From contig NZ_VYQE01000001.1 in assembly GCF_008710275.1 (NCBI RefSeq), positions 310,001 through 374,000 on the forward strand: a stretch of DNA of 64,000 nt, in the 5' to 3' direction. Positions 9,204-44,341 of this stretch are shown piece by piece; positions within the stretch are counted from its first letter, which is position 1; every line of letters begins with the position of its first letter. The notes under the pieces are model-generated. The model was given only the letters and a program-made list of their open reading frames with translations. It did no database searches and had not been told where the DNA came from. The translations under genes were made by a program, and so were the position numbers. The stretch comes from Histidinibacterium aquaticum. GTDB taxonomy: Bacteria > Pseudomonadota > Alphaproteobacteria > Rhodobacterales > Rhodobacteraceae.

Positions 9204-10121
9204 TTACTCGGCGTCCGCGTTGGCGACGGTGACCAGCGTCGTGGGCACGTAGATCACCCGCTGCACGATCTCCTCGCCTTCGAGGATCCGCGCCACCGTG
9301 TCGGCGGCGGTCTGACCGATGCCCTCGAAGTCCTGCGCGACGGAGGCTTCGAAGTTGCCGCCCGCCGCGATGGCCTCGCGCGCCTGGGGGTTGGCGTCGA
9401 TCCCGGTGATGACGATCCCCTCGTCGGCGCGGCCGGCAGCCTCGATGGCCTGCAGCGCGCCCAGCGCCGGCTGGTCCCAGGCGGCCCAGACGGCGTCGAT
9501 GCTGCCCTCTTCCGGGTTGGCGGCGAGCAGGGCTTCCATCTGCGCGCGGCTGTCGGCGATCCCGCCGTCGCTCACGTCCGGGGTGATGCGGTCGAGCACC
9601 TGGATGTCGGGGAAGTTGCCGAAGACCGCGTCGGCGATCACGCCGCGCGCCTGCACCGGCGGGAAGGGATCGAAGGTGAACATGACCACGTTGCCCTCGC
9701 CGCCGATGCGGTTGGCGACGTAGACCGCGGTCTCGGCCGCCATGGCGTAGCCGTTCGAGGTGACGTTCGCCGCGACCAGCGGGTCGCTCCCGGCATCCAT
9801 CCCGACGACCGGGATCCCCGCGTCCTCGGCGGTCTGAAGGCCCGCCCCGATCTGCGCCGGGTCGACGTTGATGACGATGGCGTCGACGCCCTGGTTGACC
9901 ACGTCCTCCATCCGGCTGATCACCGCGGCGACGTCGCCGGCGGTATCGATCACGTTGAGGTCCCAGCCAAGCTCCTCGGCGCGCGCCGTGAAGCCGTCGA
10001 CGTAGAACTGCGTCCCCGGCTGCGCGAGGTAGGGAGTGATCACCGCAACCTCTTGCGCCAGGGCCGGTACGCCGAGACCGGTGGCGGCCGCCAGGCCGAT
10101 GAATGTGGTGCGAAGCGTCAT
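9204..10121 (-). CDS. periplasmic sugar-binding protein (RbsB-like)
   Basis: 305-residue substrate-binding protein of the transporter encoded downstream. The open frame extends much further upstream, but the ATG at 10121 begins a clean Sec signal peptide (TTFIGLAAATGLGVPALAQ) with GGGGAGGA upstream. The mature part has the periplasmic-binding-protein type 1 pattern: VDAIVINVDPAQIGAGLQTAEDAGIPVVGMDAGS, then VWAAWDQPALGALQAIEAAG and GIDANPQAREAIAAGG. It is divergent from an FGGY kinase gene (96-base gap), suggesting a shared regulatory region and that the imported sugar or polyol is that kinase's substrate. Confidence 0.92.
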   Translation of the reverse strand: MTLRTTFIGLAAATGLGVPALAQEVAVITPYLAQPGTQFYVDGFTARAEELGWDLNVIDTAGDVAAVISRMEDVVNQGVDAIVINVDPAQIGAGLQTAEDAGIPVVGMDAGSDPLVAANVTSNGYAMAAETAVYVANRIGGEGNVVMFTFDPFPPVQARGVIADAVFGNFPDIQVLDRITPDVSDGGIADSRAQMEALLAANPEEGSIDAVWAAWDQPALGALQAIEAAGRADEGIVITGIDANPQAREAIAAGGNFEASVAQDFEGIGQTAADTVARILEGEEIVQRVIYVPTTLVTVANADAE

Positions 10122-35860: not shown

Positions 35861-37537
35861 TCAGCTTCCGGTCGTCCAGGCGTCGAGCCGGAGGTTTGCC
35901 GAAGTCTCCACCTGTAGCCTGTCTGGCGAGACGTTGTCGTAGCTTCGCCTCGTCCCGCAGACGCTGCCGTTGTCTGCGAATATCTCCAGGATGCCCCTGT
36001 CGTGCAGGACGCGAAGATCCCGGGCTCCGGGAATCTCCGCGGAATAGGTGATCTCTCCGTCGTCGCAGGGCACGCGAACGGACAAGACGCCATTCTCAAC
36101 GCTGATGACGAAGGAGTCATCGCCGTCCTGCGTTGCGACGATACGGGTTCCGTCAAGTGAACCGGTGAGAGAGAGGTCGATGGGCGCGTCGGGAAGATGA
36201 AAGCCGCCCCCGGGCTCCCCGGGGATCGTCTGCGCCGGGCAGGCCTCCGCGATCTCGTCGACAAGGCTCATGCAGAGACGTCCTCTTGCGTCGACCGAGA
36301 GTTCACGCGGCAGGCTCATCTCGCCGGAATATGGAGAGCCCGGCGGCTTGCGATTTTCCCAGTTGAAGAGCCAGGCGATGGCGACCTGCCGGTCCCCCGC
36401 CCGGCAGGATTGCATGGCGTAGAAATCGGTCCCGAAGTCGAGAAGCTGGAGAACCCCGTCGGTCTCGAACCGGTCGTTCTCGAAGTCGCCCACGAGCGCG
36501 AAGAGCAGGTTGTGCCGTCCGCTCCCGGGGTCCGTGTGACCGACGAAGCCCATGACGAGCACCCATCGGCCGTCGAGGGGGAAGAAGTCCGGGCACTCGA
36601 CAGCGCGCGCGCCTTCCGCCTTGAACTTGGCGGGGGCGCGGTAGAGCGGGCCGAGATAGCTCCAGCTCACTTGGTCGTCCGAACCATAGAGCAGGACCGC
36701 CGGATCGCCGTCGATCGCTCCGCCGAGGACCATCCGGTACGCGCGGGCGGCTTGGTCCCACCAGACCTTCGGGTCTCGGAAGTCGTGCACCACGCCGTCC
36801 GGCCGGTCCTCGAGAACGACGGTCGTGCGCTCGACGCCCAGAAGGCCGGGGCCGGGCTCGGCCCGCTTCTGGATCTCGGTATAGCCCTCGACGAGGTCGT
36901 AGGCCGGCAGCCGCTCGGTGTAGAAGATCACGGGCGCCCCCTCGCGGTCGAGGAAGGTGCTGCCCGAGAAGGCCCCGCCGGTCGCGCCGAGCGGCCAAAG
37001 CGGCTGCTCGGGGTGCAGGAAGACCGGCAGATGCGTCCAGTGGACGAGGTCTTTGCTCGTCGCGTGCCCCCAGTGCATGGGGCCCCAGTCCCGGCTCGCG
37101 GGGTGGAACTGGTAGAACAGGTGCCAGGTGTCGCCGATGCGGCAGAAGCCGTTGGGATCGTTCATCCACTGGCGGACCGGGGAGAAATGGATGCGCGGCC
37201 GGTCGGGATCGGCGCACATCCACTCGGTGATCTCCTGACCCGTCCGGCGGGTGATGCCGTCAGGGCCGAAGTCCCAGGCCGTGATGCCGGTGTGCGCCAC
37301 GTCGTCGGGGTGCCAAGAATAGGCCCACGAGATGGCCCCTGCCCCGGACCATTCGATGGTCGCTCGGTCCGTTGACATGTGCCGGTAGCTGAAAAAGCCC
37401 GGCTGCTCCGGAAAGCTGGGGACCTGCCAGACGACACGCTGTCCCACCCGGATCCGCAGGGTACCCGGCGCGCCTCCGGCCCAAAGCTCGAGCCGCGCGC
37501 CGGGGGCGAGTTGGAGGTCTTCGGTCGCTTGGGTCAT
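35861..37537 (-). CDS. GH32 beta-fructofuranosidase (fructanase-type), cytoplasmic
   Basis: 558 residues without signal peptide. Catalytic domain from about 113: nucleophile Asp127 in RQWMNDPNGF, transition-state stabiliser Asp255 in HDFRDPKVWW, acid/base Glu314 in RAVECPDFF, followed by SYGEM-like PYSGEMSLPREL and a C-terminal beta-sandwich (FVISVENGVLSV; LHDRGILEIFADNGS). The first ~105 residues form an extra beta-rich segment not seen in short invertases. ATG at 37537 overlaps the GH91 stop (ATGA). Last of the six-gene operon, so it probably cleaves the product of the GH91 enzyme, such as inulobiose or a short fructan, to fructose. Confidence 0.9.
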   Translation of the reverse strand: MTQATEDLQLAPGARLELWAGGAPGTLRIRVGQRVVWQVPSFPEQPGFFSYRHMSTDRATIEWSGAGAISWAYSWHPDDVAHTGITAWDFGPDGITRRTGQEITEWMCADPDRPRIHFSPVRQWMNDPNGFCRIGDTWHLFYQFHPASRDWGPMHWGHATSKDLVHWTHLPVFLHPEQPLWPLGATGGAFSGSTFLDREGAPVIFYTERLPAYDLVEGYTEIQKRAEPGPGLLGVERTTVVLEDRPDGVVHDFRDPKVWWDQAARAYRMVLGGAIDGDPAVLLYGSDDQVSWSYLGPLYRAPAKFKAEGARAVECPDFFPLDGRWVLVMGFVGHTDPGSGRHNLLFALVGDFENDRFETDGVLQLLDFGTDFYAMQSCRAGDRQVAIAWLFNWENRKPPGSPYSGEMSLPRELSVDARGRLCMSLVDEIAEACPAQTIPGEPGGGFHLPDAPIDLSLTGSLDGTRIVATQDGDDSFVISVENGVLSVRVPCDDGEITYSAEIPGARDLRVLHDRGILEIFADNGSVCGTRRSYDNVSPDRLQVETSANLRLDAWTTGS

Positions 37538-38964
37538 GGGGTGACTCCTGCCGCAGGGACGGGCGTGGCGAAGAAGGCGTTGCGGCTGCGGTCCATCTCC
37601 ACCTCCGCGTCACTGCCGGAAAAGAGCACCGTGTTGCCGGCGGAGGCCTCGTCGATCAGCACCGTGCGCATGTCGAGCGGGGCCGCGTCGCCGGCCGAGA
37701 GGAGCGCGCCGACCTGCGTGGCGAAACAGGCGCTGTTGGGAGCCTCGTCCGAGGACGAGCCGGCGACGGTCCCGACGACGTTGTTGTTCGCGATATAGTT
37801 GCCGGCTCCCGTGGCGACCCGGATGGCAATGGAGGTGGCCCCGTCGGGAGTGATCGCCTCGGGCGGGAGAGACTGGGAAATATGGTTGGCAATGATCGAG
37901 TTGTTGCTGCCCTCGATCCGGACGAGGCCGAAGAGGTCGTCCAACCCGTTGTCGTAGCCGAGCATCGGGGCCCAGGGCTCCCGGTCGCGGAGGAAGTGGT
38001 TGGCGGAGACGAGGTTCTCCGATGCGCCGTCGGAGAGAACCAGCATCCCGGGGTAGAAGGAATGAAAGCGGTTGGACGTAACCGACGACCGCACGACTCC
38101 GGACAGGTGGACGCTGCTCTTGCCCCGCGGAAAGACGTTGTTGCCGGAGATGAGCAGCCCGCCGTGGTTCTCGGCGTAGATCGAGTGGCCCCGGTAGCCC
38201 GCACCGATCAAGTTGTTGGCGATCCGCGAGGCCTGCCCCATGCCCCTCAGCTCGATGCAGTTGCCGCATTCAGCGATGAAATTGTTGTCGACCGAAAGGG
38301 CGTCGGCGTCGTCGATCTTGAGCCCGTGCTCGAGATAGATGAGCCCCATCCCCGTGATGCGGAACGAGTCGTTGGCGCTGACGACGTGGATGCCGGTCTT
38401 GCCGTTGAGATAAGAGTTCTCCGCGTCGGCGCCGCCGGTCTCCCGAGCCTCGAAATGCAGCCCGTCGATACAGAAGTCCGCGAATTCGACCGAGCTGATC
38501 CGCGGATTGCCCTCCCTCCGGACGAGGAAGGCAGCCTCCTCCCTCGCCGCGAGGTCCACGACGATGCGGCTCCCCCCGGGCCAGATCTCGTGCCAGTTCG
38601 AGAGTTCCTCGGGCGGCGTGTTGAAACGGATGCTGGACGAGGTGAAGCCATGCCCCGCCCCGACGATCCGCAGGTAGCTGATGTCGATCACGACCTGCGT
38701 CCGAAGCCGGTAGTCGCCCGGCGGGATGAAGATCACGCCCCCCGGCTTGCCGCCATCGCCAGCGTCGCGGGCCTGCTGACGCGTCTTGATGTCGGCGATG
38801 ATGGCGTTGATGACCGCGCCGATGTCCTCGGATGCGTCGCCACCGGGCCACCGGGTCACGTCGTAGGAGTTCTGCCCGGGCTCTGCGCGGGCCGGGCCCG
38901 GCATCCAGCCATCCGGAGCCTGCGCACTGGGGGCGTCTTGGGTCTTGTCGGGCATTCTCGTCAC
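37534..38964 (-). CDS. GH91 protein: inulin fructotransferase / difructose-anhydride hydrolase family
   Basis: 476-residue right-handed parallel beta-helix protein. Segments SYDVTRWPGGDASEDIGAVI, ADIKTRQ, IPPGDYRLRTQVVIDISYL, NSYLNGKTGIHVVSANDSF, ITGMGLIYLEHGLKI and NGLDDLFGLVRIEGSNN correspond closely to GH91 enzymes of Arthrobacter/Bacillus that form or open difructose anhydride III. Asp221 and Glu232 (DALSVDNNFIAEC) have the 11-residue spacing of the Asp/Glu pair that I recall as catalytic. There is no signal peptide (MTRMPDKTQDAPSAQAPDGW), unlike secreted inulin fructotransferases, so intracellular hydrolysis of an imported anhydride is the better reading. GTG start at 38964 overlaps the ATPase stop (GTGA); ATG at 38955 is the alternative. 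Confidence 0.88.
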   Translation of the reverse strand: MTRMPDKTQDAPSAQAPDGWMPGPARAEPGQNSYDVTRWPGGDASEDIGAVINAIIADIKTRQQARDAGDGGKPGGVIFIPPGDYRLRTQVVIDISYLRIVGAGHGFTSSSIRFNTPPEELSNWHEIWPGGSRIVVDLAAREEAAFLVRREGNPRISSVEFADFCIDGLHFEARETGGADAENSYLNGKTGIHVVSANDSFRITGMGLIYLEHGLKIDDADALSVDNNFIAECGNCIELRGMGQASRIANNLIGAGYRGHSIYAENHGGLLISGNNVFPRGKSSVHLSGVVRSSVTSNRFHSFYPGMLVLSDGASENLVSANHFLRDREPWAPMLGYDNGLDDLFGLVRIEGSNNSIIANHISQSLPPEAITPDGATSIAIRVATGAGNYIANNNVVGTVAGSSSDEAPNSACFATQVGALLSAGDAAPLDMRTVLIDEASAGNTVLFSGSDAEVEMDRSRNAFFATPVPAAGVTP

Positions 38965-40109
38965 CAGATGCTGAGGCGCGTGTCGCGGTCGAAGAAGTGC
39001 AGGTTCTCGGCGGTCACCGCCAGGCGCGCCCGGTCCCCCGGTCTGACCTGCGTGCGGGGAGCGAACCGCCCGACCGCCGAGGCCGGCCGACGACCTTCGG
39101 TGCCGTCGTCCACGCCCTCGGCATCCACCTGCGGTGCGTCGATTTCGAGATGCGCGAGCGTCTCGGCACCGAGGGACTCGACCAGCGTCACCGGGGCGGA
39201 AATTTCCGCGAAGGCGCGCTTCTCCGTCACCGAGGCGTCGTCGATGTCCTCGGGCCGGATGCCGACGATGACGGGCCGTCCGGCGTGAGACCGCAGGCTC
39301 GGCCGGGTTTCGAAGACGGGCGCGGGCAGCGGGATCTCCTGGCTGCCAAGGCGCAGCGTCTCGCCGTCGAGCTGCGCCTCGAAGAGGTTCATGGAAGGTG
39401 AGCCGATGAAGGCCGCGACGAAGACGTTCGCGGGCCGATTGTAGAGGTTCTGCGGCGTGTCGACCTGCTGCAGCCGGCCGGCCTTCAGCACGGTGACCCG
39501 GTCGCCCATGGTCATCGCCTCGACCTGGTCGTGGGTAACGTAGACCGTCGTGACGCCGAGGCTGCGCTGCAGACCCGCGATCTCGGCCCGCATCTGGACG
39601 CGAAGCTTCGCGTCGAGGTTCGACAACGGCTCGTCCATGAGGAAGGCCTTGGGCTTGCGGACGATCGCCCGCCCCATGGCAACCCTCTGGCGCTGGCCGC
39701 CCGAGAGATGCGCGGGCTTGCGGTCGAGGTGCGGCGTCAGCTCGAGGATGCGCGCCGCCTCGTCGACCTTGGCGTCGATCTCGGCCGATTTCATCCCGGC
39801 CATGCGCAGGGGGAAGGCGATGTTTTCGCGGACGGTCTTGTGCGGGTAGAGCGCGTAGGACTGAAACACCATCGCGATATCCCGGTCCTTGGGGTCGACG
39901 CCGTTGACCACGCGGTCACCGATCGAGACCTCGCCCGAGCTGATGCTCTCCAGTCCGGCGATCATGCGCAGCGCCGTCGACTTGCCGCAGCCGGAGGGAC
40001 CGACGAAGACCATGAACTCTCCGTCTCGGATGTCGAAGGTGAGGTCGTGGATCGCGTGGAAGCTGTCTCCGTAGACCTTGTTGACCTTGTCGAGTGTGAT
40101 GTGCGCCAT
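38961..40109 (-). CDS. sugar ABC transporter ATPase (MalK/UgpC type)
   Basis: 382 residues. ATPase domain with Walker A GPSGCGKS (about 38-45), Q-loop MVFQSYALYPHKTV, signature LSGGQRQRVAMGRAIVR, Walker B AFLMDEPLSNLDAKLR and switch His in VYVTHDQVEAMTMGD. The C-terminal TOBE/OB domain (about 240-375) contains GIRPEDI. ATG at 40109, four bases after the MalG-like stop. Energises the CUT1 importer of this operon. Confidence 0.94.
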   Translation of the reverse strand: MAHITLDKVNKVYGDSFHAIHDLTFDIRDGEFMVFVGPSGCGKSTALRMIAGLESISSGEVSIGDRVVNGVDPKDRDIAMVFQSYALYPHKTVRENIAFPLRMAGMKSAEIDAKVDEAARILELTPHLDRKPAHLSGGQRQRVAMGRAIVRKPKAFLMDEPLSNLDAKLRVQMRAEIAGLQRSLGVTTVYVTHDQVEAMTMGDRVTVLKAGRLQQVDTPQNLYNRPANVFVAAFIGSPSMNLFEAQLDGETLRLGSQEIPLPAPVFETRPSLRSHAGRPVIVGIRPEDIDDASVTEKRAFAEISAPVTLVESLGAETLAHLEIDAPQVDAEGVDDGTEGRRPASAVGRFAPRTQVRPGDRARLAVTAENLHFFDRDTRLSIW

Positions 40110-40113
40110 CGTC

Positions 40114-40962
40114 TCAGCCTTTCACCGCGCCGAAGGTCAGCCCGCCGATGATCTGCTTTTGCAGGACCAGAGTGACGAGAATGACGGGAAGAGAATAAAG
40201 GACGGCCGCCGCCGTCATGGGCCCCCAGGCCAGACCGTAGACGGAGTTGAACTCCGCGATGACGATCGGGGCCGTCTTGCTGTTCTGCGACGTGAGCAGC
40301 AGCGCAAAGAGGAACTCGTTCCAGCTCGCGATGAAGCTGAATAGGGCCGTGATCGCCATGCCGCCGCGCATCACCGGCAGGATAATGTGAAGGAAGGCCT
40401 GGAAGCGGCTGCACCCGTCGATCCGGGCCGCCTCTTCGAGGTCCTTCGGGACGTTCTCGAAGAAGGCCGCCATCAGCAGGAGCGCCAGCGGAACCGCGTT
40501 GGAGGTATGGGCCAGCACGAGGCCCGTCGTCGTGTCGAGAAGCCCAAGCGACTTCAGCAGCTGGAACAGGGGCACGCCCAGCGAGACCGGCGGCACCATT
40601 CGCGTGACCAATGCGAAGAGCAGGAAGGACACCGTCAAGGGACGCCGGTAGCTGGTTGCGACATAGGCCGCCGGGACCGCGATCAGGAGCGACAGCACCG
40701 TCGTGAGCACCGCCACGATCGCCGAGTTGAGAAAAGCCTGCGGCAAGCCGGCGGTGCCGATCGCGGTCTCGAAGTTCTCGAGCGTCACGCGGTCGGGAAA
40801 GAAAGACGGCGGGATCTGCTGGACGTCGGCCGCGGGCTTGAGCGAGGTCGAGACCAGGTAGACGTATGGCACGGCGTAGGAGAGGACGAGCAACAGGGCC
40901 AGGCCGTTGATGACCGTCTTCCCGACGTCGGGGTTGGCACGGGAGGTCAAGCGATCAGCCAT
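40114..40962 (-). CDS. sugar ABC transporter permease (MalG type)
   Basis: 282 residues, six membrane helices. The cytoplasmic EAA loop is EEAARIDGCSRFQAFLHIILPVMRGG near 190-215; a typical P-rich periplasmic segment IPPSFFPDRVTLENFE follows helix 1. ATG at 40962 overlaps the MalF-like gene by eight bases. Confidence 0.93.
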   Translation of the reverse strand: MADRLTSRANPDVGKTVINGLALLLVLSYAVPYVYLVSTSLKPAADVQQIPPSFFPDRVTLENFETAIGTAGLPQAFLNSAIVAVLTTVLSLLIAVPAAYVATSYRRPLTVSFLLFALVTRMVPPVSLGVPLFQLLKSLGLLDTTTGLVLAHTSNAVPLALLLMAAFFENVPKDLEEAARIDGCSRFQAFLHIILPVMRGGMAITALFSFIASWNEFLFALLLTSQNSKTAPIVIAEFNSVYGLAWGPMTAAAVLYSLPVILVTLVLQKQIIGGLTFGAVKG

Positions 40963-41833
40963 GATCGACCCTCCAGATCTTCCAGTAGGCCAGACCGGCC
41001 AGCGCGACCATGAAGAGCAGGAAGAGCGTCGCCAGCGCCGAGGCCTCGCCCAGGTCGCCGTAGCGCACCATGCGCTGGTAGATGTTCATCGACAGCACCT
41101 CGCTTGCCTGCCGGGGGCCGCCCTGCGTCTGGATCCAGATCAGGTCGAAGGTCTTGAGCGCGTCGATCCCCCGGACGATGAGCACGACCGCGATGACCGG
41201 GCGCATGAGCGGGAGGGTGACGTGCCAGAACCGGCTGAGGGCCCCTGCCCCGTCGATCCGCGCCGCCTCGATCAGGTCCTTGGGGATGTTGGTCAGGCCG
41301 GCATAGCTGACCAGCGCGACGAAGGAGGTCGTCAGCCAGATGTCGGCCGCGGCGACGGAGTAGATCACGATATCGGTGTCCGACAGCCAGCGGATCGCGC
41401 CCGGGTCCGGGATCACGCCGATCGCGGTGAGGCCGTAATTCAGGATGCCGATGTCCCCCACGAGAAGGAAGCGCCACAGCAGGCCCGCGACGATGGGCGA
41501 GATCATCAGCGGAAGGGCGAAGATCGTGCGGTGCCAGCGGGACCGCTCCGCGATGGAGGCAAACAGAAGCGCCGCGCCGAAGCCGAAGAGGAACTCGAAG
41601 AAGAGCGCGAAGCCCGCGTACTTCAGTGTCCGGATCGCGGAGTCGTGGATCCGCCCCGAGGTCAGCGCGTCGGCGTAGTTTCCCAGGCCCACCCATTCGC
41701 GGGCCGCGGGGGCCATGAGCTCGACCTCGAAGAACGAGTTGTAGACAAGGAGCGCGACCGGATAGGCGACCAGGAGCCCCAGAAAGAGCACGGCCGGCGA
41801 CAGCATCGCGAGAACGAAGCGGCGTTCAGACAC
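40955..41833 (-). CDS. sugar ABC transporter permease (MalF type)
   Basis: 292 residues, six membrane helices, EAA loop IEAARIDGAGALSRFWHVTLPLMRPVIAV near 190-218. ATG at 41833, 62 bases after the binding-protein stop. Partner of the MalG-type permease. Confidence 0.93.
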   Translation of the reverse strand: MSERRFVLAMLSPAVLFLGLLVAYPVALLVYNSFFEVELMAPAAREWVGLGNYADALTSGRIHDSAIRTLKYAGFALFFEFLFGFGAALLFASIAERSRWHRTIFALPLMISPIVAGLLWRFLLVGDIGILNYGLTAIGVIPDPGAIRWLSDTDIVIYSVAAADIWLTTSFVALVSYAGLTNIPKDLIEAARIDGAGALSRFWHVTLPLMRPVIAVVLIVRGIDALKTFDLIWIQTQGGPRQASEVLSMNIYQRMVRYGDLGEASALATLFLLFMVALAGLAYWKIWRVDHG

Positions 41834-41895
41834 GGGTCCCCCCTACTCGAAGAAGCGGGGCCGGAGGCAGCAGGAGCCGCCTCCGGCCGTCGCGA

Positions 41896-43134
41896 TTACT
41901 GGTCGAGAATGTCCCGGGCGATCTCCGCCGCCTCTTCTAGAAGCTCCCCGACGTTGTCGTCGCACTCCAGCGCCCCCTGGAAGGCGGGGATCACGGCCTG
42001 ATCCAGCAGTTCCTGGTAGTCGGGGTGGATCGGACGGCCCTGCGTCGCGGGCGCCGAGAGGGTGGTCAAGAGAGGCTCGAAGTGCTCGTAGCCCTCCGTG
42101 TCCATGTAGCTCTCGTAGGCGGAGTTCGCGGCGGCCAGCCCCAGCGGCGCCTCGATGCCGAGCCCGTTGTTGGCGATGGCATAGGCGACGAACTGCTTCG
42201 CGGCCTCCTTGTTCTCGGAAGTCGAGGGAACGACGTTGTACCAGGGCCCCGGGATCCCGGCGATGCCCGCCTCGCCCGCGATCATGGGCGCGACCCCCAC
42301 CCGGCCGGAGACCTGGCTATCCTCGGGCGTCAGACGGTAGGCATGGGCCCAGAACTTCATCATCGCGGTCTGACCCTGGTAGAAGAGGTTCTGCTCCTCG
42401 CCCCAGCCGATCTCGAGCGCGTTCTCCGGGGCGGATCCATCTTCGCAAAGCGGGGCGCGGTAGAATTCGAGCGCGGCGCGGTGCGCCTCGTTGTCGAGGA
42501 TGACCGTGCCGTCCTCGTCGAGAACCACGCCCGGCGAGCCCGCCTGAAGGACATGCGCCATCCACTCTTCCGGGTTCAGACCGTTGACGGAGGTCCCCAT
42601 CATGTCCTCGGTCGTGAAGAACTCGGCCATGTCGCGCCACTGCTGCCAGGTCTGGGGCGGGGCGAGGTCGTAGCCGTATTCTTCAGCGAAGGCTTCCTGG
42701 TTCTCGGCGGACTCGAAGAGATCCTTGCGGTAGAACACGACCTCGGCGTTGGCCCAGGCCGGCATCCCGATCATCCGACCGTCGACGTTTGCGTCGTCGA
42801 TGAGCGCCTGCGGCAGGTCTGAGCGCACCTCTTCGGTGAAGAGGTCGCTCAAGTCCTCGACATGGTCGGCGAAGGCAGCGTTCCAGACGACGTCGATGGT
42901 CGCGACGTCGAAGTTCGAGGTGCCCGAGGCGATCTCGGCGGACAGCCGATCGAAGACGCCCTGGTACGGGACCTCGACGAAGTTGACCTCGATGCCGGTC
43001 TCCTCGGTGAATTGCTCTGCCATCTCCTGCTGCAGCATGAGGCCACCGCCCTCGACGAGAACCGTGATCTCCTGCGCCTGGGCCGCACCGGCCGCCAAGG
43101 CGACAACGGCCGCCGAAGTGTAAAAGGTCTTCAT
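41896..43134 (-). CDS. periplasmic oligosaccharide-binding protein (CUT1, MalE/UgpB type)
   Basis: 412 residues. Signal peptide KTFYTSAAVVALAAGAAQAQ; mature start EITVLVEGGGLMLQQEMAEQFTEETGIEVNFVEVPYQGVFDRLSAEIASG, a classic family-1 binding-protein opening, with GMPAWANAEVVFYRKDLFE and GIPGPWYNVVPSTSENKEAAKQFV later. ATG at 43134 has GGAGGAG six bases upstream; the longer frame is not supported. First gene of the operon that also carries GH91 and GH32 enzymes, so its ligand is likely a difructose anhydride or short fructo-oligosaccharide. Confidence 0.92.
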   Translation of the reverse strand: MKTFYTSAAVVALAAGAAQAQEITVLVEGGGLMLQQEMAEQFTEETGIEVNFVEVPYQGVFDRLSAEIASGTSNFDVATIDVVWNAAFADHVEDLSDLFTEEVRSDLPQALIDDANVDGRMIGMPAWANAEVVFYRKDLFESAENQEAFAEEYGYDLAPPQTWQQWRDMAEFFTTEDMMGTSVNGLNPEEWMAHVLQAGSPGVVLDEDGTVILDNEAHRAALEFYRAPLCEDGSAPENALEIGWGEEQNLFYQGQTAMMKFWAHAYRLTPEDSQVSGRVGVAPMIAGEAGIAGIPGPWYNVVPSTSENKEAAKQFVAYAIANNGLGIEAPLGLAAANSAYESYMDTEGYEHFEPLLTTLSAPATQGRPIHPDYQELLDQAVIPAFQGALECDDNVGELLEEAAEIARDILDQ

Positions 43135-43201
43135 TGTGGGCTCCTCCCTATCTTCGACAGCGCGATCCTGCAGCGCTGACGAAGTAGACAAAAACAGACT
43201 A

Positions 43202-43258
43202 TGTCGACGTCGTCAAACTAAATGTCGACGTCGACATAGCTGATTGTCGACGTCGACA
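43202..43258. promoter_or_regulatory. three phased LacI-type operators
   Basis: TGTCGACGTCGACA occurs perfectly at 43223-43236 and 43245-43258 and with one mismatch at 43202-43215. Starts are 21 and 22 bases apart, two helical turns each. A TTGACG -35 candidate for the minus-strand operon lies on the bases 43211-43216, inside the first copy. The array separates the transporter operon from the divergent LacI-family gene, which is the obvious ligand-controlled binder. Confidence 0.8.
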
Positions 43259-43312
43259 GTTGCGAGGGGATGAACCGCCCGCTACATTGCCGCCGAGGCA
43301 GGAGGCACGGGC

Positions 43313-44341
43313 ATGGTCAGCATCAAGGACGTCGCGAAGGCGGCGGGCGTGTCGGACAAGACCGTGTCCCGGGTAGTCAACCGAGAGCCGAACGTGAGCA
43401 CCGACACGGTCGAGAAGGTGCGCTCCGCCATCGACCGGCTTGGCTACATCCCGAACCTTGCCGCCCGCAGCATCCGCTCCAGCCGGTCGGGCATCGTCGG
43501 CATCATAACCGACTACGTCTCGACGACCCCCTACTCCGGCGACATCGTCCGGGGCATCCAGGCCTGGGCGGAGGCACAGGGGCGCACGGTGCTGCTGGCC
43601 AGCACCAACGGTGACCCCCACCGCGAGCGGGAGGTCTGGCGCACCTTCCAGGCGCACCGCCTCGACGGCGTCCTGCACGTCGCGATGTATCGCCGGGTGG
43701 TCGAGCCCGAGAACGGCGACATCCACATCCCGACGGTCCTCGTGAACGCGCGCCCGAAGCGCGCGGGCTCGTTCCATTCCATCGAGCCGGACGACTTCGG
43801 CGGCTCGCGGGCGCTCGCGCGTCACCTGCTGGAGCTCGGTCATCGCCGGATCGGGTACATCCGGCTGAACCCGCTATTGCTGGGCGCCAACGAACGGTAC
43901 GAGGCCTTCAGGGAAACCCTGCAGGAGGCGGGTCTCGGGCAAGCGGACCTTGATGTCCGCCTCGGCATGGAAGGTCCGATCGGGGAAGAGGAGAACTTCG
44001 TGTTTCGCGAGACGACGGCGATGCTGTCGGCGCCTGACCGCCCCTCGGCCGTGGCCTGCGGCAACGACGAGATGGCCCTTCAGGCCTACCTGGCCGCCCT
44101 TCAGCTCGGCCTTCGGGTACCCCAGGACGTCACGATCGTCGGTTTCGACGACTTCCGGACCATCTCGCTCGCCCTGAAGCCCGAATTGACGACCGTGGCC
44201 CTGCCCTATTTCGACCTTGGCTGGCAGGGAGCGGAAATCCTCGACGGGGTCATCGCGGGGCCGGCGGAGAGCGGTCGCAACCGGTCCCTCGAATGCCGGC
44301 TCGTCCCGCGCGCCTCCTCGGGACCTCCCCACCAGGCGTGA
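43313..44341 (+). CDS. LacI-family transcriptional regulator of the fructan/DFA operon
   Basis: 342 residues. N-terminal LacI helix-turn-helix SIKDVAKAAGVSDKTVSRVVN (3-23) and hinge RLGYIPNLAARSIRSSRSG, then a periplasmic-binding-protein-like effector domain (VGIITDYVSTTPYSGDIVRGI; GHRRIGYIR; DVTIVGFDDFRTISLALKPELTTVALP). ATG at 43313 has GGAGG seven bases upstream. Divergent from the six-gene operon behind the operator array, so it probably represses both until a fructose-containing inducer binds. Confidence 0.93.
   Translation: MVSIKDVAKAAGVSDKTVSRVVNREPNVSTDTVEKVRSAIDRLGYIPNLAARSIRSSRSGIVGIITDYVSTTPYSGDIVRGIQAWAEAQGRTVLLASTNGDPHREREVWRTFQAHRLDGVLHVAMYRRVVEPENGDIHIPTVLVNARPKRAGSFHSIEPDDFGGSRALARHLLELGHRRIGYIRLNPLLLGANERYEAFRETLQEAGLGQADLDVRLGMEGPIGEEENFVFRETTAMLSAPDRPSAVACGNDEMALQAYLAALQLGLRVPQDVTIVGFDDFRTISLALKPELTTVALPYFDLGWQGAEILDGVIAGPAESGRNRSLECRLVPRASSGPPHQA

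What the first reader, a model, noticed from the sequence alone, without database searches (positions are those of the whole stretch)
35861..44341. Putative cytoplasmic difructose-anhydride (or short fructan) catabolic locus
Seen: one overlapping six-gene unit (binding protein, MalF, MalG, MalK, GH91, GH32) divergent from a LacI gene. Known: GH91 enzymes make or open difructose anhydrides; GH32 releases fructose. Inference: because neither enzyme has a signal peptide and they are fused into an importer operon, the cell takes up a difructose anhydride or inulobiose-size fructan and finishes it inside. I know of GH91 mainly from secreted actinobacterial and Bacillus enzymes, so an alphaproteobacterial importer-coupled system would be new or little described.
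Basis: partly seen in the sequence, partly recalled or inferred. Interest (0 to 1): 0.87.

Follow-up and report, generated by a model that had tools for sequence, protein, structure and literature searches.

The report
Import-and-split operon for difructose anhydride III
This stretch of an alphaproteobacterial genome carries what looks like a complete, self-regulated gene set for importing the cyclic fructose sugar DFA-III and breaking it down inside the cell; the pathway is already known in gut and soil bacteria, and what is new is its scattered presence in Rhizobium-type bacteria and its regulatory layout.

Summary
In detail: a seven-gene cassette (LacI diverging from SBP-MalF-MalG-MalK-GH91-GH32) is at the stated place. 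The GH91 belongs by sequence with DFA-III hydrolases: 604 bits against solved DFA-IIIase, 378 against inulin fructotransferase, with the catalytic Asp/Glu and the lid insert. Neither enzyme shows a signal-peptide-like N-terminus; the binding protein does. All seven genes keep this order in 23 of 33 alphaproteobacterial loci examined. An SBP orthologue occurs in exactly the 4 of 199 Rhizobiaceae genomes that hold GH91. Three tandem operator-like sites, 21-22 bp apart, stand in 29 of 30 LacI/SBP intergenic regions; a displaced Martelella GH91 still carries two. Import of DFA-III, opening to inulobiose and splitting to fructose is therefore well supported by sequence, untested biochemically. It is not a new kind of system: Blautia (PMC11538131) and Arthrobacter have it. 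New here are the alphaproteobacterial branch, its plasmid spread, the operator array and a lidless second GH91 in some relatives.

The parts
43313..44341 (+). LacI-family regulator, divergent from the operon
   Evidence: Pfam LacI + Peripla_BP_3; LacI 60-71% identical beside the importer in alphaproteobacterial relatives
43245..43258 (.). operator-like palindrome 1 (LacI side), TGTCGACGTCGACA
   Evidence: conserved position in relatives
43223..43236 (.). operator-like palindrome 2, TGTCGACGTCGACA, 22 bp from site 1
43202..43215 (.). operator-like site 3 (binding-protein side), TGTCGACGTCGTCA, 21 bp from site 2
41896..43134 (-). CUT1 solute-binding protein with signal peptide (the longest ORF runs to 43191)
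   Evidence: Pfam SBP_bac_1 112.7 bits; N-terminus; start context; orthologues aligned
41834..41895 (-). 62-nt SBP-MalF spacer with a 13-bp hairpin
40955..41833 (-). MalF-type permease
   Evidence: BPD_transp_1
40114..40962 (-). MalG-type permease
   Evidence: BPD_transp_1
38961..40109 (-). MalK/UgpC-type ATPase
   Evidence: ABC_tran + OB_MalK; NCBIfam UgpC subfamily model, 468.8 bits against cut-off 432
37534..38964 (-). GH91 DFA-III hydrolase (DFA-IIIase) by sequence, cytoplasmic, with lid; catalytic D221 and E232, lid Cys413
   Evidence: PDB DFA-IIIase 604 bits; residues and lid; residue function from PMC4640833
35861..37537 (-). GH32 beta-fructofuranosidase, cytoplasmic, with a ~110-residue N-terminal extension
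   Evidence: Glyco_hydro_32N 233.1 bits and 32C 22.7 bits; best solved relative beta-fructosidase 1uyp, 168.6 bits; WMNDPNG / RDP / ECPD motifs in the translation (motif meaning recalled)

Best explanation
A dedicated DFA-III utilisation operon. The periplasmic binding protein captures DFA-III (324 Da, small enough for general porins; recalled), and MalF/MalG/MalK import it. Cytoplasmic GH91 DFA-IIIase opens the cyclic dianhydride reversibly to inulobiose. GH32 beta-fructofuranosidase then splits inulobiose to two fructoses, pulling the unfavourable equilibrium forward. Fructose enters central metabolism through a genomic PfkB-type kinase. The divergent LacI protein represses the operon by binding three operators about two helical turns apart, and is released by an intermediate, probably DFA-III or inulobiose. 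Shown by sequence: gene content, subfamily, active-site and lid residues, likely compartments, operator-like array, co-inheritance. Inferred: the ligand of the binding protein, the inducer, repression itself, the reaction direction in vivo, and which kinase acts.
For: GH91 is far closer to solved DFA-IIIase (604 bits) than to inulin fructotransferases (378 and 373 bits; a further 'Fructotransferase' 278 bits) and aligns through the stretch that carries C387 of the PDB mutant. D221 and E232 correspond to the two residues whose mutants were completely inactive in an Arthrobacter DFA-IIIase (PMC4640833, passages); both are invariant in 86 of 86 GH91 rows. The lid insert is in the window protein and in the main GH91 of 82 of 82 loci, and missing in 3 of 3 second GH91s examined. 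PMC11538131 states that the lid is what lets DFA-IIIase hydrolyse DFA-III. The order LacI<->SBP-MalF-MalG-MalK-GH91-GH32 is kept in 23 of 33 alphaproteobacterial loci. The SBP orthologue (E<=1e-60) occurs in the same 4 of 199 evenly drawn Rhizobiaceae genomes as GH91. Three operator-like sites in 29 of 30 LacI/SBP intergenic regions and two in the other; 89 sites against a shuffled mean of 0.065 (the motif was drawn from these same regions). In Martelella the displaced GH91 keeps two sites 22 bp apart in front of it while the importer-GH32 operon lies on the same contig, SBP gene about 24 kb away.
Against: Nothing contradicts it directly. Limits: the nearest solved binding proteins are distant (best 99.5 bits, maltose-type) and do not tell the ligand. 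Blautia DFA-IIIase also acts on nystose, GF4 and inulin, so short inulo-oligosaccharides could be co-substrates. Three relatives carry a second, lidless GH91 near the cassette, which hints at a broader substrate range there. No sigma-70-like promoter was found by the consensus scan in 43050-43400. In the 64-kb window 1 of 100 shuffles also gave three motif matches. The Martelella importer operon has two sites 33 bp apart, not 21-22. No kinase is shown to be a fructokinase: the one candidate scored is far below the model's cut-off. I know of no enzyme or growth test for this branch.
Confidence: 0.84

Rival explanations
1. The importer mainly takes up inulobiose and short inulo-oligosaccharides (kestose- to nystose-size); GH32 does most of the work and GH91 is a side enzyme that trims them or recycles DFA-III formed inside.
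For: [quoted passage not shown] Three relatives add a second GH91 resembling inulin fructotransferase.
Against: A GH32 alone should suffice for inulo-oligosaccharides (general knowledge), so strict co-inheritance of GH91 with the binding protein (4 of 4 and 0 of 195) and the operator-like sites kept by the displaced Martelella GH91 would be unexplained.
Confidence: 0.11
2. GH91 runs in the synthetic direction, making DFA-III from inulobiose in the cytoplasm as a stored or protective solute.
For: The Blautia enzyme equilibrium favours DFA-III, 59.3:40.7.
Against: A GH32 in the same operon would remove inulobiose, and the operon holds an importer but no exporter.
Confidence: 0.02
3. GH91 is an inulin fructotransferase that depolymerises inulin.
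For: GH91 contains inulin fructotransferases; a Pectobacterium betavasculorum protein, probably the one in L042, is listed as 'Inulin fructotransferase DFA-I-forming' (PMC10991766, one passage), and one Rhizobium plasmid record annotates the homologue 'fructotransferase'.
Against: No signal-peptide-like N-terminus, lid present, closer to DFA-IIIase by more than 220 bits.
Confidence: 0.02

Closest known systems
Blautia DFA-III degradation gene cluster (PMC11538131; parts 1-4 of 6 read: all main text and figure legends, part of the references)
   Same: GH91 DFA-IIIase, GH32 beta-fructofuranosidase and ABC transporter genes together; intracellular two-step route DFA-III to inulobiose to fructose proposed there
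   Different: In the two Blautia-named loci fetched here (L068, L073) there is no nearby MalK above 60% identity, GH32 lies before GH91, and SBP, MalF and MalG are 34-37% identical to the window's
Arthrobacter DFA-IIIase pathway (PMC4640833 and PMC8605356: passages only); example locus L112 on an Arthrobacter plasmid
   Same: Intracellular DFA-IIIase; L112 has SBP, MalF, MalG, GH91 (61%), LacI, GH32 in a row
   Different: L112 also carries a second GH91 (51%) about 4 kb upstream on the other strand; the window genome has only one GH91; no MalK matched inside the L112 row
Bifidobacterium dentium DFA-I cluster (alphaFFase1; PMC8605356, passages)
   Same: LacI, GH32, intracellular DFA hydrolase and ABC importer
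   Different: Hydrolase belongs to another family (DUF2961), not GH91, and acts on DFA-I; it did not act on DFA-III
Enterobacterial GH91 loci (15 of 82: L031-L037, L041-L046, L050, L066)
   Same: GH91 63-66% identical; LacI within the span checked in 14 of 15, GH32 in 7 of 15
   Different: Importer is a GPH/MFS_2-type symporter, not an ABC system (Pfam check of three)

Membership tests
GH91, DFA-III hydrolase subfamily | Homologous over nearly the whole length to solved DFA-IIIase, and closer to it than to inulin fructotransferase | tested here: met
   604 bits against 378, 373 and 278
GH91, DFA-III hydrolase subfamily | Catalytic Asp and Glu (D207/E218 of the A. aurescens enzyme) | tested here: met
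   D221, E232; invariant in 86 of 86 rows; function from PMC4640833 passages
GH91, DFA-III hydrolase subfamily | Lid insert over the active site | tested here: met
   Insert present in the sequence with Cys413; role from PMC11538131; no structure was modelled
GH91, DFA-III hydrolase subfamily | Reversible conversion of DFA-III and inulobiose | not testable with these tools
   Needs purified enzyme
GH32 beta-fructofuranosidase | GH32 N- and C-terminal domains | tested here: met
   PF00251 233.1 bits (cut-off 22.1), PF08244 22.7 bits (cut-off 21.9); below the NCBIfam cut-offs of two narrower models
CUT1 carbohydrate ABC importer | SBP, two permeases, MalK-type ATPase with OB domain in one operon | tested here: met
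CUT1 carbohydrate ABC importer | Transport of DFA-III | not testable with these tools
   Ligand inferred from operon and co-inheritance only
Secreted inulin fructotransferase | Signal peptide, no lid | tested here: not met
   No hydrophobic N-terminus by a simple score, lid present
Local LacI repressor-operator system | Palindromic sites between the divergent LacI gene and the operon, conserved in relatives | tested here: met
   Three sites; 29 of 30 regions have three; own genome has one other site at <=1 mismatch, the reversed control also one
Local LacI repressor-operator system | Binding and release by an inducer | not testable with these tools
   Needs DNA-binding assay

The most novel reading that the evidence does not exclude
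Soil and rhizosphere alphaproteobacteria carry DFA-III catabolism as an accessory, often plasmid-borne cassette, so DFA-III made from plant inulin by secretors such as Arthrobacter is a real and contested rhizosphere carbon currency. The trait is run by a LacI switch with an unusual array of three operators two helical turns apart. Some members add a lidless cytoplasmic GH91 with a new substrate. The window organism, with no inulin fructotransferase of this family, would be a pure scavenger.
Probability: 0.4. Interest if true: 0.58.

Novelty: new member of a known kind. Interest (0 to 1): 0.42.

Why it matters
It extends a pathway characterised in Arthrobacter, Blautia and Enterobacterales to a branch of Alphaproteobacteria, including Rhizobium and Agrobacterium plasmids, where the key enzyme carries the uninformative name 'NosD domain-containing protein' in 23 of the 30 best plasmid rows. 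It gives a directly testable phenotype (growth on DFA-III), a candidate inducible promoter-operator set, and a case where regulon logic can be read from a natural gene relocation in Martelella.

Tried and rejected
Empty-site comparison: the HerA gene to the left was found in 8 of 12 relatives searched and 19-kb surroundings were taken from 6 of them; none matched the window's other flanking frames beside it, so no insertion point could be defined. Weakness: the query frames were picked by length, so some may be antisense and real genes may have been missed. Composition: operon G+C 66.5% against 66.4% for the window, so no compositional sign of recent transfer; patchy distribution is the only evidence for transfer. 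Regulon beyond the operon: not supported; the own genome has one further site at <=1 mismatch and the reversed control pattern also gives one. Reading the second genomic GH32-family gene (C5, 328 aa, in another CUT1 operon) as a secreted inulinase feeding this pathway: its frame starts at the enzyme domain without a visible signal peptide, so not supported. Binding-protein ligand from solved relatives: not discriminating. Structure prediction was not run, because sequence similarity to a solved DFA-IIIase was already strong. A phrase search for tandem LacI operator triplets gave no paper, but one phrase is a weak search. The GH91 of the Arthrobacter locus L112 was not added to the tree (the script found no single open frame over the match), so the tree holds no Arthrobacter row. 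A second GH91 in Glycomyces L077 was not analysed: the script picked a wrong frame.
Full report
OBSERVATION. On the minus strand the order is binding protein (most likely 43134-41896), MalF 41833-40955, MalG 40962-40114, MalK 40109-38961, GH91 38964-37534, GH32 37537-35861; LacI runs the other way, 43313-44341. MalF/MalG overlap by 8 bp, MalK/GH91 and GH91/GH32 by 4 bp; MalG and MalK are 4 bp apart, and SBP and MalF are separated by 62 nt that fold into a 13-bp hairpin (-39.3 kcal/mol; shuffles mean -29.35, sd 3.15). GH32 ends 13 bp from the end of a convergent HerA-like gene. In NCBIfam only MalK passes a curated cut-off; GH91 has no match there.

WHAT THE GH91 IS. Against the PDB the protein scores 604 bits with DFA-IIIase (5zks), 378 with inulin fructotransferase (2inu), 373 with a DFA-III-forming one (9j4i) and 278 with a further 'Fructotransferase' (8hsn). 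That 5zks is the Arthrobacter chlorophenolicus enzyme is recalled. The alignment with DFA-IIIase runs through the region that holds the C387 of the PDB mutant; the window has a cysteine there (C413). In an alignment of 86 GH91 rows (window, the main copy of 82 loci, three second copies) D221 and E232 are invariant, 86 of 86; the lid insert, judged by eye on the printed block, is in the window and in 82 of 82 main copies, and absent from the three second copies; the lid cysteine is C in 80 rows, A in 3 and a gap in 3. D221 and E232 correspond, by local sequence context, to D207 and E218 of A. aurescens DFA-IIIase, whose mutants were completely inactive (PMC4640833, passages seen). PMC11538131 (parts 1-4 of 6 read) says that excluding the lid turns DFA-IIIase into an inulin fructotransferase and that the lid allows hydrolysis of DFA-III. 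The enzyme is therefore filed as a DFA-IIIase by sequence; activity was not tested.

COMPARTMENT. The binding protein starts MKTFYTSAAVVALAAGAAQA; GH91 and GH32 have no hydrophobic stretch in their first 50 residues. No outer-membrane receptor lies in the operon, which suits a small sugar and not inulin itself (inference).

RELATED LOCI. A scan of species genomes gave 117 relatives, of which the best 80 were returned; with two annotated plasmid loci chosen by hand 82 were classified. A CUT1 importer (SBP, MalF, MalG) lies near GH91 in 55 of 82 by that script, and in a 56th (L027) by the wider view. A GPH/MFS_2-type symporter takes its place in 15 of 82, all in Enterobacterales (three checked with Pfam). 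In the remaining 11 neither was found: L039, L054, L065 and L070 are cut short by the contig end on at least one side; L001 (Martelella) has the importer elsewhere on the same contig; the others are L015, L047, L051, L056, L076, L080. Of the 33 alphaproteobacterial loci, 23 keep all seven genes in the window's order (one of them, Agrobacterium L084, with an extra GH91 between GH91 and GH32); 4 more lack only MalK (L026, L028, L029, L030); three have GH32 further off behind a second sugar-importer cluster (L010, L013, L064); L027 is rearranged; L001 and L015 are broken up. L003-L005 come from one strain and L006/L007 have identical GH91, so these counts are not independent.

TREE. The GH91 tree pairs the window with Maritimibacter L020 (95/97), but both end branches are flagged as long and their place as unsure; the highest identity is with Martelella L001 (70%). 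The 34 alphaproteobacterial rows are set apart from 49 others by a branch with only 94/52 support. The bootstrap had not settled, and the tree holds no Arthrobacter row.

CO-INHERITANCE. In 199 genomes drawn evenly from the family of G063 (the genome of L006, R. mongolense; family name Rhizobiaceae as printed), GH91 occurs in 4. An SBP match at E<=1e-60 occurs in the same 4 and in none of the other 195 (in the rows shown at most 9 candidates per genome were scored). In the window's own family, 1 of 394 genomes, its own, has GH91; one other gave a 19-bit match over 94 residues, too weak to be an orthologue. None of 60 relatives, 4 of them same-genus, has it. The cassette is thus accessory and patchy. 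Base composition does not differ from the surroundings.

REGULATION. Between LacI and the binding-protein gene lie three sites, 43202-43215, 43223-43236 and 43245-43258, matching TGWCRACGTYGWCA. They are the only matches at <=1 mismatch in the 64-kb window; shuffles give a mean of 0.11, and 1 of 100 shuffles reached three. In 30 divergent LacI/SBP intergenic regions (27 distinct, window included) 29 have three sites and one (Maritimibacter) has two, always 21 or 22 bp apart; 89 sites in all against a mean of 0.065, at most 1, in 200 shuffles. The motif was drawn from these regions, so the count shows conservation, not an independent prediction. Two loci with a non-divergent LacI were left out (L010, L013); one search shows two sites 22 bp apart there too. 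The own genome has one further site at <=1 mismatch, no more than the reversed control gives. Martelella offers a natural test: its GH91 stands apart from the importer yet has two sites 22 bp apart just upstream (L001: 9831, 9853), plus a third one-mismatch site at 9565; the LacI/SBP region of its importer-GH32 operon has two sites, here 33 bp apart (L122: 5208, 5241). Its SBP gene lies about 24 kb from GH91 and its GH32 about 20 kb (start to start). The consensus promoter scan of 43050-43400 found nothing.

FATE OF THE PRODUCT. The genome has 8 PfkB-family genes. Two of the 8 were scanned: one is an inositol-pathway kinase fusion; the other (L093:1501-2415) has fructokinase as its best model but far below cut-off (142.5 against 450 bits), and its closest solved relatives are a generic PfkB kinase (392 bits) and then fructokinases (125 bits). 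A fructokinase is plausible, not shown. A second GH32-family gene lies in another CUT1 operon. Only one GH91 was detected in the genome, so the organism appears to lack an inulin fructotransferase of this family and would depend on DFA-III from other sources (inference).

COMPARISON WITH WHAT IS KNOWN. The same pathway is published for Blautia: recombinant GH91 DFA-IIIase, growth on DFA-III, and GH91-GH32-ABC clusters, with import by the ABC transporter stated there as a hypothesis (PMC11538131). That paper also names DFA-IIIases of Salmonella and Duffyella. PMC8605356 (passages) describes a three-stage scheme for Arthrobacter and an analogous DFA-I system with another hydrolase family. An Arthrobacter plasmid locus examined here has the same parts (L112). 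The window is thus a new member of a known kind. Searches for alphaproteobacterial, Rhizobium or Agrobacterium links to difructose anhydrides or GH91 listed no paper that looked relevant (listings only, papers not opened; open-licence PMC only). In public plasmids 85 of 72,556 records match, 84 of them over at least 80% of the query; 79 of the 85 are Rhizobium, Agrobacterium, Sinorhizobium or Pararhizobium. Among the 30 best rows 23 are called 'NosD domain-containing protein', 4 have no feature named and 3 records have no annotation; a few others further down are called 'fructotransferase' or beta-helix protein.

VERDICT. Observation confirmed; function well supported and narrowed to DFA-III; novelty claim reduced to a new lineage and a new regulatory layout.

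Noticed in passing
L084:13592-14797, L006:1805-3025, L027:5850-7052: A second GH91 without lid, in frames that begin at or a few residues before the enzyme domain, near or inside the cassette in Agrobacterium pAt, Rhizobium mongolense and Pleomorphomonas. The Agrobacterium copy is closest to a DFA-III-forming inulin fructotransferase (366.5 bits), yet looks cytoplasmic; the simple hydrophobicity score is high (1.78) only for a stretch of the conserved domain itself. Function unclear.
   Followed up: partly
L001:9831-11362 and L122: Martelella GH91 lies some 20-24 kb from its importer operon but has two LacI-type operator sites 22 bp apart in front of it.
   Followed up: yes
L031-L037, L041-L046, L050, L066: In Enterobacterales the GH91 is paired with a GPH/MFS_2-type symporter in place of the ABC importer; Mangrovibacter L034 also has a PfkB kinase and a partial RafY-type porin match nearby.
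   Followed up: partly
plasmid records: The enzyme is annotated 'NosD domain-containing protein' in 23 of the 30 best plasmid rows, a likely cause of its being overlooked.
   Followed up: partly
window 41834-41895: Strong hairpin between SBP and MalF genes, of the kind thought to raise binding-protein mRNA over permease mRNA (recalled).
   Followed up: partly
G000:C5 about 440400-446900 (L109:2377-8862): Another sugar-importer operon with a LacI-like gene, MalF, MalG, a short GH32-family protein (328 aa, 66 bits) and MalK; substrate unknown.
   Followed up: partly
window 35861-37537: GH32 has a ~110-residue N-terminal extension before the catalytic domain; one solved beta-fructofuranosidase (6nob) aligns from residue 49.
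   Followed up: no
L077:3164 (minus strand), L112:6778-7968 (minus strand): Glycomyces and Arthrobacter loci also carry a second GH91 (47% and 51%) near the importer; possible secreted inulin fructotransferases, not analysed.
   Followed up: no
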